Origin: Dicyema japonicum
Taxonomy: Eukaryota > Dicyemida > Rhombozoa > Dicyemidae
Direction of reading: 5' to 3'
NCBI GenBank assembly: GCA_011109175.1
Contig: RDEW01000012.1
Span: 598,874 to 658,334 of the forward strand
DNA length: 59,461 nucleotides
The notes under the pieces were generated by a model. The model was given only the letters and a program-made list of their open reading frames with translations, made no database searches and was not told the DNA's origin. The position numbers and the translations under genes were made by a program. Below, piece by piece: positions 43,539 through 45,987 of the stretch. Every line of letters begins with the position of its first letter. The first letter of the stretch is position 1.

Positions 43539-45987
43539 ATGGAAAATGAAGAATTCATTATTCTGCCGAATCCAAGGTATATTCGCTAAAAAATATTGAA
43601 TTAGTGTTAAAAACTTAATTTCAAAAAGGTTGGTGACATTTAAGGTTAATGACGTCAATTCTTTAATGCACGATCAAATAGGTTTTCATTGCTTAGTTAC
43701 AAATTAGGTTTAATATTATTCTACAGATTTTGTAAAAACGATCCTGTTTACACAAATATTCTGAAATTTATTAATCACGTTCTTTTATCTTATTTTTAGA
43801 TAATTTCGTATTCACGACTGTCAGCTATTGATAGAACACAAAGTGCAAGCACTATTTTTAAAAATTTCATTGTCAAATATTCACTTGAATTAAATGTATA
43901 TTATTTTATGTTAAGATAGGATTTTATTAGTGAATCAAATTTATTAAGAATTATAAAAACCCTAAATAATATTTGTAATGAAGAGAAATCATCCATTATT
44001 AATATAAATGAAAAATTTTTGTCTATTGAATTTTTTAAAGTTGTAAATTTAATGAATTTTAGGAAATTGAAGATGAAATATATATTTTCCTTGAACAAAA
44101 ATTTCATTCTTTCATGAAATCGTATGAATTAATGAGAATAATTTTAGAAATTATTTCGTGAGATATTGCCAGTGGAAAGATGTAGAATATAGTCTTCAGG
44201 TTAGCGTTATAAAATTTTGCAGCCTGTTTTAGAGGATTTTCATCTTTCTCAAATGATCGGCAAAGGCTCTTACGGCGTTGTTTATTTATGTGAAAGAATT
44301 GAAACAAAGAAAAGGTATACATTACAAATTTTTATATTTATTATCGGAAGTTAAAATTATTTCATTATATGAGAAATTTAAATTTCACTACGATTTCAAA
44401 TATACATATAAAATTACAATTTAGATATGCAATCAAGTGCATGGAAATTAAAAATGAAGAAATTTGAAAAGAGTTTCCGATGAAGCAAATTTGAAATACG
44501 AAATTAGTTTTAAAGTATTTTTATTATTTGATAATAAAGAAATGTAATTTTATTGTTGGATTGAGTTATGCATTTGCGAAAGATAAACATATTTACTTTA
44601 TACTTGATTTGATGGAAGGGGGGACACTTGCCCAACATATTTATGAACGTGGAAAGTTTGAAATCAAATCTATCATTCATTACTCCAGTCAAATTATTTT
44701 AGCCTTATCTTATTTACACTCTATGAATATAATTTCTCGAGATATTAATGTAATTTTATGTCTAAGAAAAGCCTTCAAATATTTTACTTGATGCACGCGG
44801 ACAGGCAAAACTAAATAGTTTACGTTTAGCTGGAAATTATAAAAAACAGAATTTTACTTCTAAAACGTATTTTATAAATTTAAAATAGTGGGAAAGTTGG
44901 ATTCATGGCACCAGAAGTGATTGATAGTCAAGGGAAGCCTTATGGCACAGAAGTGGACATATTTTCTTTAGGATGTCTAATATATAAATTAGCTACGGGG
45001 TATTTTAATATGTAAAATGAAGAAAATCTCCATTTTCAAAAAATTCATCTGATTTGAAGATAATTGAATCTTTAACGTTAAATTGTGAATTTGAACTTTC
45101 AAGTGATATTCCAGAAAATTTAATTCTTTTATTAAAACAATTAATCGTAAAAAACCCCGAACAAAGGTTGAAAATTGACGAGTTAGAATTTTTATAAAAT
45201 TGAAGTATAAAGAACCATATGATTTTCAAAGAACTTGACTGGAATAAAGTTTTGGAGTTAAAATATGACTCGCCATTTATTCCACCATCTTTAGAAGTTA
45301 ACATGCCAACTTGCAAAATATCGCCTTTAATGAATTTTTCAAATTCCGTAAAATATAAAGTTTTTTTATATTAATGATATTCAGTCTAATGAAAATTTTG
45401 AATTTGATGCTAAAAAATTTCCTTCTTTAACAGTTGGGTCTAGTTGGCAAGAAGAAATAATATCGGCTGGATTATTTGAAAAAACAATGAAACTAACTAG
45501 TGAATATGCATTATCAAAAAATTATGTATCCCCTTCGTATTCTCCATATAAATATTCCTGCATCATTGAAGGAGAAATTTTCCTTTTGACGAACCAAATT
45601 TTTTGCACATGGCAAAAAAGAAATTTATATGTTTACTACAATCAACTTGTTTTAACATACCAGAAAGAAGACTATAATAAAATTCCTAAAGACGACGAGG
45701 TTCGCATTCTTTTCTAGGATAGATTATTTTATATGAAAATATATCAACGTGTATCGAACAACTTAGAACGATACTTAGGAATGAATAATTGTTTTATAAT
45801 AAATCTTAAAAATGGAAAACATTTAGTTTTCACTGGATCTGTAATTCTTAAAATATTAGTTTGGTAGAGTTTGGCAACTTCTCAACAGTGGTGTCTAGAA
45901 ATATTTAACTGGTTTAATAAAATTATGAGGACAAAAGAGGCTCTAATCAATAAAACATTAAAAATAACATTATTTTACCAAAAATAA
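43539..45987 (+). CDS. GRK: GRK2/3-type G-protein-coupled-receptor kinase, probable pseudokinase
   Basis: RGS-homology, AGC-kinase and PH domains in GRK2 order. Eighteen exons joined over introns 43577-43628, 43682-43707, 43779-43799, 43896-43919, 44040-44062, 44122-44147, 44200-44222, 44315-44424, 44437-44459, 44515-44539, 44750-44771, 44867-44888, 45000-45022, 45182-45205, 45360-45384, 45700-45717 and 45841-45867 give 644 aa without a break. RH: IGLILFYRFC, CQWKDVEYSLQ. Kinase: IGKGSYGVVYL, YAIK lysine on a 12-nt exon, CNFIVGLSYAF, FILDLMEGG, GFMAPEV, ELDWNKVLEL with PFIPPSLEV. PH: WQKRNLYVYYNQL to a helix with QQWCLEIFNWFNK. Odd: the catalytic loop is SRDINPSNILLD (Lys to Asn) and the DLG site is LNSLRLAG (Asp to Ser, Gly to Arg), so phosphotransfer is doubtful. 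Human GRK2 is 689 aa. Confidence 0.9.

What the first reader, a model, noticed from the sequence alone, without database searches (positions are those of the whole stretch)
43539..45987. GRK2-type receptor kinase that has lost catalytic residues but keeps an intact 644-codon frame
Seen: the gene reads RH-kinase-PH in one frame through 17 introns, so it is not a pseudogene. At the DLG (DFG) site the sequence is LNSLRLAG, and in the catalytic loop RDINPSN replaces RDLKPxN. The glycine loop, the YAIK lysine and the APE block remain. Established: the DFG Asp binds Mg-ATP, and the loop Lys supports phosphotransfer in AGC kinases; GRK2 also acts without catalysis by binding G-alpha-q (RH) and G-beta-gamma (PH). 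Inference: this animal may keep a GRK only as a G-protein sink or scaffold.
Basis: partly seen in the sequence, partly recalled or inferred. Interest (0 to 1): 0.8.

Follow-up and report, generated by a model that had tools for sequence, protein, structure and literature searches.

The report
Lone receptor kinase without catalytic residues
A tiny parasitic animal appears to keep a single gene of the GRK2 family (enzymes that tag cell-surface receptors to switch them off), but this copy has lost residues needed to act as an enzyme and several of those that bind G proteins.

Summary
The catalytic losses are real. The gene at 43539-45987 is GRK2/3-type (PDB phmmer: GRK3 3.8e-74, GRK5 2.2e-45).

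The "intact frame" is only partly right. Sixteen of 17 introns score within the range of 53 local introns; 44437-44471 scores below all 53, and the assembled frame breaks at 44462-44466. But EF2 and HSP90 show three such breaks in 1,528 codons, so ordinary assembly error can explain it.

The proposed G-protein sink is weakened: Galpha-q contacts (R106S, D110K), a lipid contact (K567L) and the Gbeta-gamma contact (R587Q, the laboratory loss-of-function change) are replaced, and no N-terminal receptor-docking helix was found.

Best reading: a GRK pseudokinase kept after catalysis was lost, partners unknown. Reads, transcripts and a second species are needed.

The parts
43539..45987 (+). GRK2/3-type gene, ATG to stop; 18 exons in a model with 17 introns, 649 codons plus stop
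43539..44199 (+). RGS-homology (RH) region; introns 43577-43604, 43682-43707, 43779-43799, 43896-43919, 44043-44062, 44122-44147
   Evidence: Pfam RGS 21.5 bits, just under the cut-off of 23.9
43848..43862 (+). Galpha-q contact sites: GRK2 R106 is S (43848-43850) and D110 is K (43860-43862); F109 kept
44223..45181 (+). kinase domain (Pkinase 182.9 bits); credible introns 44315-44424 (110 nt), 44515-44539, 44750-44771, 44867-44888, 45000-45022
44425..44514 (+). beta3 to alpha-C stretch: YAIKCMEIKNEE in one frame, LKRVSDEANLKYEISFK in another; frame break at 44462-44466, probably an assembly error.
44738..44780 (+). catalytic loop RDIN|PSN split by intron 44750-44771: R316, D317 and N322 kept, K319 is N (44747-44749)
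44817..44825 (+). DLG site reads SLR: D335 is S, G337 is R
44893..44895 (+). P+1-loop T353 is K; the APE motif just downstream is kept
45206..45516 (+). AGC-tail region (contains FKELDW, SPFIPP, SSWQEE); introns 45182-45205 and 45360-45384
45540..45987 (+). PH-homologous C-terminus (boundaries approximate); K567 is L (45583-45585), R587 is Q (45643-45645), W576 and W643 kept; introns 45700-45717 (18 nt) and 45841-45867
   Evidence: no Pfam PH match
45983..45988 (+). AATAAA overlapping the stop codon, possible poly(A) signal

Best explanation
The gene is the only GRK detected in a dicyemid-like animal and encodes a GRK2/3-type pseudokinase. Shown from sequence: RH, kinase and PH-homologous regions are present, but residues for phosphotransfer (K319, D335, G337, T353), Galpha-q contact (R106, D110), the activation contact R195, lipid contact (K567) and Gbeta-gamma contact (R587) are replaced, and no receptor-docking N-terminal helix was found. 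Inferred: catalysis was lost while the frame was still being kept by selection, so the protein is, or until recently was, used without catalysis. It may act as a folded scaffold or allosteric partner whose binding surfaces are no longer the mammalian ones. K220, D317, N322 and the APE motif remain, and the metal-binding Asp is replaced within an SLR motif. Nucleotide binding without magnesium, as in STRADalpha (GLR), is therefore a possible working mode; this step is purely inferred. The single frame break in the assembled sequence is most likely an assembly error.
For: GRK identity: GRK3 3.8e-74, GRK2 1.7e-70, next GRK5 2.2e-45. The losses lie in ungapped aligned stretches; the four catalytic sites differ from the consensus residue by at least 5 bases in sum. 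Of 15 other kinase loci of the genome aligned to the same positions, 14 keep R316, D317, K319, N322, D335, G337 (10 of 10; 4 of 5). No stop appears in the 649-codon model; simulated neutral drift altering about 10% of residues gave a mean of 4.6 stops and 0 of 200 stop-free runs. Sixteen of 17 introns score within the range of 53 local introns. EF2 plus HSP90 carry 3 frame breaks in 1,528 codons, so 1.3 are expected in this gene at that rate and 1 is seen. The gene's DNA matches only itself in the genome. The 15 kinase matches that score above the gene's own best segment in a GRK2 search were looked at and none is a GRK.
Against: No transcript, no reads and no second species were available. 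Another kinase of the genome (L062, PKC-like) has also lost the HRD Arg, the DFG Asp and Gly, so such losses are not unique to this gene and may mark decaying copies. Only 59 of 110 kinase positions shared by four GRKs are kept, which also fits general decay. GC3 is low (0.22, against 0.40-0.54 in four G-protein genes), in an AT-rich stretch. Two intron choices each hide a stop: 44437-44471 (TGA) and the 18-nt 45700-45717 (TAG). Four introns, among them the two next to the catalytic losses (44750-44771, 44867-44888), score in the lowest 8-11% of the training set. Loss of the known contact residues leaves no known partner.
Confidence: 0.6

Rival explanations
1. It is a pseudogene: GRK function was dispensed with and the gene is decaying, with the frame break at 44462-44466 as a true lesion.
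For: Frame break in the assembly; loss of catalytic and contact residues alike; low GC3; 51 of 110 GRK-shared kinase positions changed or gapped; a second kinase of the genome is also degraded at its active site.
Against: Breaks of the same kind occur in EF2 and HSP90, so about one is expected by error. No stops in the 649-codon model and 16 introns with ordinary splice signals. With simulated drift that changes 10% of residues, none of 200 runs stayed stop-free.
Confidence: 0.22
2. One reading: a non-catalytic sink that binds Galpha-q through RH and Gbeta-gamma through PH.
For: RH and PH-homologous regions persist; Galpha loci (including L020, which aligns well to Gq) and Gbeta-like loci exist in the genome.
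Against: R106S, D110K, K567L and R587Q fall on residues whose mutation is used to abolish these contacts (passages of PMC5638609 and PMC11220067). PH identity is 26 of 101 aligned GRK2 positions and Pfam sees no PH domain.
Confidence: 0.1
3. Still an active or weakly active kinase: catalysis by an unusual route, or altered residues that are sequencing errors.
For: K220, D317 and N322 are kept; the assembly does seem to contain errors.
Against: Four residues differ by at least 5 bases in sum; the errors seen in controls are changes of length; 14 of 15 other kinase loci show no such substitution at the K, D and G sites.
Confidence: 0.06

Closest known systems
GRK2/GRK3 (beta-adrenergic receptor kinases)
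   Same: Order RH, AGC kinase, AGC tail, PH; best sequence match over model residues 6-639
   Different: Catalytic K, D, G and T lost; Galpha-q, lipid and Gbeta-gamma contact residues replaced; no N-terminal docking helix found
Kinase-independent roles of GRK2 (zebrafish cyclin pathway; Drosophila Gprk2 with Smo; table entries seen in passages of PMC3215182)
   Same: A GRK acting without phosphotransfer
   Different: Those proteins are, as far as I recall, active kinases with an extra role; here the gene itself lacks catalytic residues
STRADalpha pseudokinase (GLR in place of DFG; PMC2686265 and PMC4718504, passages seen)
   Same: Basic residue at the DFG glycine position; metal-binding Asp gone
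   Different: Another kinase group (recalled); STRADalpha lacks the VAIK Lys and keeps a catalytic-loop Lys, here it is the reverse
C. elegans GRK-2 (PMC5638609, passages seen)
   Same: GRK2/3 orthologue in a small animal
   Different: In locomotion worm GRK-2 needs kinase activity, the N-terminal helix, R195, K567 and R587; here, of those sites, only K220 is kept

Membership tests
GRK2/3 subfamily | AGC kinase domain closest to GRK2/3 | tested here: met
   GRK3 3.8e-74, GRK2 1.7e-70, GRK5 2.2e-45, PKA 8.9e-37 (whole protein)
GRK2/3 subfamily | RH domain before the kinase domain | tested here: met
   phmmer alignment runs from GRK3 residue 31; 20 of 28 shared RH positions kept; but Pfam RGS 21.5 bits is below the cut-off of 23.9
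GRK2/3 subfamily | C-terminal PH domain that binds Gbeta-gamma | tested here: inconclusive
   aligned to GRK3 residue 667 with W576, R579 and W643 kept, but no Pfam PH match; R587 is Q, K567 is L
GRK2/3 subfamily | N-terminal receptor-docking helix | tested here: not met
   alignment starts at model residue 6 = GRK3 residue 31; best upstream match (41500-43538, + strand) scores 16 of a possible 74 and nine other places of the window score as high
Active protein kinase | DFG/DLG Asp, loop Lys and P+1 Thr present | tested here: not met
   S, N and K in their place; 14 of 15 other kinase loci keep the Asp and 15 of 15 the Lys, 12 of 15 the Thr
Pseudokinase | kinase fold lacking one or more of the VAIK, HRD, DFG motifs | tested here: met
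   Pkinase 182.9 bits; DFG motif lost, VAIK Lys and RD kept. Lack of activity itself not testable here
Pseudogene | reading frame disrupted in the animal | tested here: inconclusive
   one break in the assembly, about the number expected from the EF2 and HSP90 rate

The most novel reading that the evidence does not exclude
The animal has given up receptor phosphorylation by GRKs altogether (and perhaps arrestins). It reuses its one GRK as a STRADalpha-like pseudokinase that binds nucleotide without magnesium through the SLR arginine and works as an allosteric scaffold in its few remaining G-protein pathways.
Probability: 0.12. Interest if true: 0.75.

Novelty: new variant of a known kind. Interest (0 to 1): 0.5.

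Why it matters
GRKs and arrestins are the standard off-switch of G-protein-coupled receptors. An animal whose only GRK cannot phosphorylate would show how receptor signalling runs without that switch, and would be a natural test of which non-catalytic GRK roles selection can keep. I saw no report of a natural GRK pseudokinase in the listings for pseudokinase with G protein-coupled receptor kinase and GRK2 (14 of 14 papers listed), with GRK, kinome, AGC, platyhelminth (10 of 20 listed) and with catalytically inactive, evolution, lost (3 of 3 listed). I judged by title and abstract start; of these I opened passages of PMC3215182 and PMC3117856 only. The latter reports 12 predicted inactive kinases in Schistosoma mansoni and a GRK-related kinase without the GRK accessory domain; the passages do not call that one inactive.

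Tried and rejected
An apparent exon reading FSLLSYKLG was set aside for the spliced reading HDQIG|LILFYRFC, which fits GRK RH domains as I know them. An alternative 59-nt intron 44315-44373 with a 17-residue insertion was dropped for 44315-44424, which has a better 3' site. The spliced-alignment program itself chose introns 43930-43983 and 45649-45717; I did not use them, because the uncut frames on either side continue.

I first read the frame break as a sign of a pseudogene. The control with other genes changed that.

I first counted 10 of 10 control kinases as intact. A later check of further loci found one, L062, that is itself degraded; the text now says 14 of 15.

Arrestin was sought by PF02752, PF00339 and a human arrestin protein with no match. 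The tool warns for two of these searches that an empty answer shows nothing, and this gene's own RH and PH were missed by six-frame searches, so I make no claim of absence.

Protein searches gave no dicyemid or orthonectid GRK recognisable by name (107 proteins, many without a name; 3 proteins at 1e-60).

Paper searches that gave nothing of use: one unrelated listing; none.

Full report
What the organism is. I picked 53 of the 74 introns proposed in eleven conserved genes, keeping those with well-aligned flanks and ordinary length; they are 19-34 nt long, median 23. This choice favours short introns, and some of the genes are paralogues. Published values are 67.5 Mb with a mean intron of 38 bp for Dicyema japonicum (PMC6736024, passages), and a median of 27 bp for Dicyema sp. 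against 57 bp for an orthonectid (PMC6543705, passages). A dicyemid is therefore likely; I did not test it with a marker gene.

The gene. The protein matches PDB chains of GRK3 (3.8e-74) and GRK2 (1.7e-70) over nearly their whole length, well ahead of GRK5 (2.2e-45). Identity to GRK2 is 40 of 153 aligned positions in RH, 89 of 242 in the kinase domain and 26 of 101 in PH.

Catalytic losses. Mapped on GRK2, the gene has N for K319, S for D335, R for G337 and K for T353. It keeps K220, R316, D317, N322 and E360; in the glycine loop G201 is S. No other + strand frame of the stretch gives RDLK or DLG. As a control I aligned 15 other kinase loci of the genome to the same positions: 10 of 10 and 4 of 5 read R D K N D G at the six sites. 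T353 is T in 12 of 15 (S in two CDK-like copies and in L062). The exception, L062 (contig C117), is PKC-like and reads S D K N N H: a second degraded kinase. L018 aligns S at K220. L017 scored identically to L016 and was not aligned.

Other functional sites. The mutations used in worm GRK-2 (PMC5638609, passages) give a ready list. The N-terminal helix is absent from the model, and no better-than-chance match lies upstream. R106 is S, D110 is K, R195 is Q, K567 is L and R587 is Q; position 109 (F) and K220 are kept. R587Q is exactly the laboratory change used to break Gbeta-gamma binding (also PMC11220067, passages). In the worm the Galpha-q contacts were dispensable for locomotion.

The frame. 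Sixteen introns score within the range of the 53; four of them lie in the lowest 8-11%, and two (110 nt, 18 nt) are outside the training lengths. The one at 44437-44471 scores lower than all 53. Its first codons, CMEIKNEE, look like GRK2 CLDKKRIK (104 of 35,659 stop-free octapeptides of the window score as high) and GRK3 (74), but not notably like a GRK4/5-like (2,282) or PKA (9,874) sequence; the stretch after the break, LKRVSDE, shows no special likeness. A frame-tolerant alignment prefers a break at 44462-44466 over that intron at a break penalty of 20; at 14 it uses two breaks. The same program finds 8 breaks in 3,261 codons of ten G-protein and kinase genes at penalty 20 (13 at penalty 14), 1 in 829 codons of EF2 and 2 in 699 codons of HSP90. 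I take the EF2 (C130) and HSP90 (C110) loci to be the working copies; weaker matches elsewhere were not examined. On that assumption these are assembly errors at about 0.65 per kb (0.13-1.91). That predicts 1.3 in this gene, and one is seen.

Was the frame kept after catalysis went? If the losses had come by neutral drift, altering about 10% of residues would bring 4.6 stops on average, and 0 of 200 simulated copies stayed open (at 4% altered, 18.5% stayed open). The model has none, although two introns (44437-44471 and the 18-nt 45700-45717) each hide one. By this rough argument catalysis was lost while the frame was still selected.

Is it the only GRK? A DNA search found only the gene itself. 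Of 61 protein matches to GRK2, two are the gene's own segments. Fifteen matches score above its better segment. All fifteen were looked at: aligned, except L017, which was only motif-scanned. By eye, from recalled motifs, they are NDR-, S6K-, Aurora-, PKA-, PKC-, PKG- and CDK-like. L010 has a DLG motif like a GRK, but its best PDB match is S6 kinase beta-1 (4.6e-69). Of the weaker matches only one, a MAPK-like gene in this window (L063), was looked at. Six-frame search misses diverged exons, so a very diverged GRK could have escaped.

G-protein context. Rhodopsin-family receptors: 6 matches at 5 places. Galpha: 20 exon matches at 7 places, L020 the best match to Gq. Several Gbeta-like genes. 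RGS: 7 matches at 5 places, the GRK's own RH not among them. No arrestin match, inconclusive.

How it may work. GRK2 is reported to act without catalysis in some settings (table entries in PMC3215182). The SLR in place of DLG recalls GLR of STRADalpha, where the arginine helps hold ATP without magnesium (PMC2686265 and PMC4718504, passages). Here the catalytic-loop lysine is lost and the VAIK lysine kept, the reverse of STRADalpha, so this remains a lead.

Verdict. A GRK2/3-type pseudokinase, probably retained.

Noticed in passing
L062 (G000:C117:127200-129600): A second kinase-like gene with a degraded active site: PKC-like, related by eye to L019, reads HSD for HRD and NFH for DFG. Possible second pseudokinase or decaying copy.
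   Followed up: partly
L059 (EF2) and L060 (HSP90), also L023, L024, L029, L030, L032: Single frame breaks in conserved, some essential, genes of this assembly: 3 in 1,528 codons of EF2 and HSP90. Any frame-based claim from this genome needs this rate in mind.
   Followed up: yes
L036-L039 and G000:C141:212916-213496: Rhodopsin-family receptor matches at five places; PMC6543705 reports two such domain hits for Dicyema sp.
   Followed up: no
whole genome: No arrestin match by two Pfam families and one protein; search sensitivity is too low to call it absent.
   Followed up: partly
window about 19450-20253 (+), L063: A second kinase gene in the window, MAPK-like by eye (VVTRWYRAPE), with the catalytic residues in place.
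   Followed up: partly
window 32153-33523 (-): A 457-codon open frame matching a cyclic-nucleotide-gated channel (Ion_trans, cNMP_binding, CLZ).
   Followed up: no
window 22594-23421 (+): Open frame of 276 codons matching DUF829.
   Followed up: no
window 3063-3653 (+): Open frame matching Fringe/galactosyltransferase.
   Followed up: no
window 26490-28523, 2080-2658, 2-1098 (+): Open frames that look by eye like LINE endonuclease and reverse transcriptase; 26490-27293 had no Pfam match, the others were not scanned.
   Followed up: no
L016 and L017 (G000:C140 and G000:C111): Two kinase matches with identical scores on different contigs: recent duplication or uncollapsed copy.
   Followed up: no
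L061 (G000:C1:2358800-2363400): Two nearly identical CDK-like kinase matches side by side, apparently a tandem duplication.
   Followed up: no
window 41500-46000: AT-rich trough (about 22-27% GC) holding the GRK gene and the start of a minus-strand neighbour, coiled-coil-like by eye, that seems to begin near 43300.
   Followed up: no
L024 against L025 and L029: Close Galpha paralogues; L024 differs by insertions near 1750-1793 that disturb its frame.
   Followed up: partly
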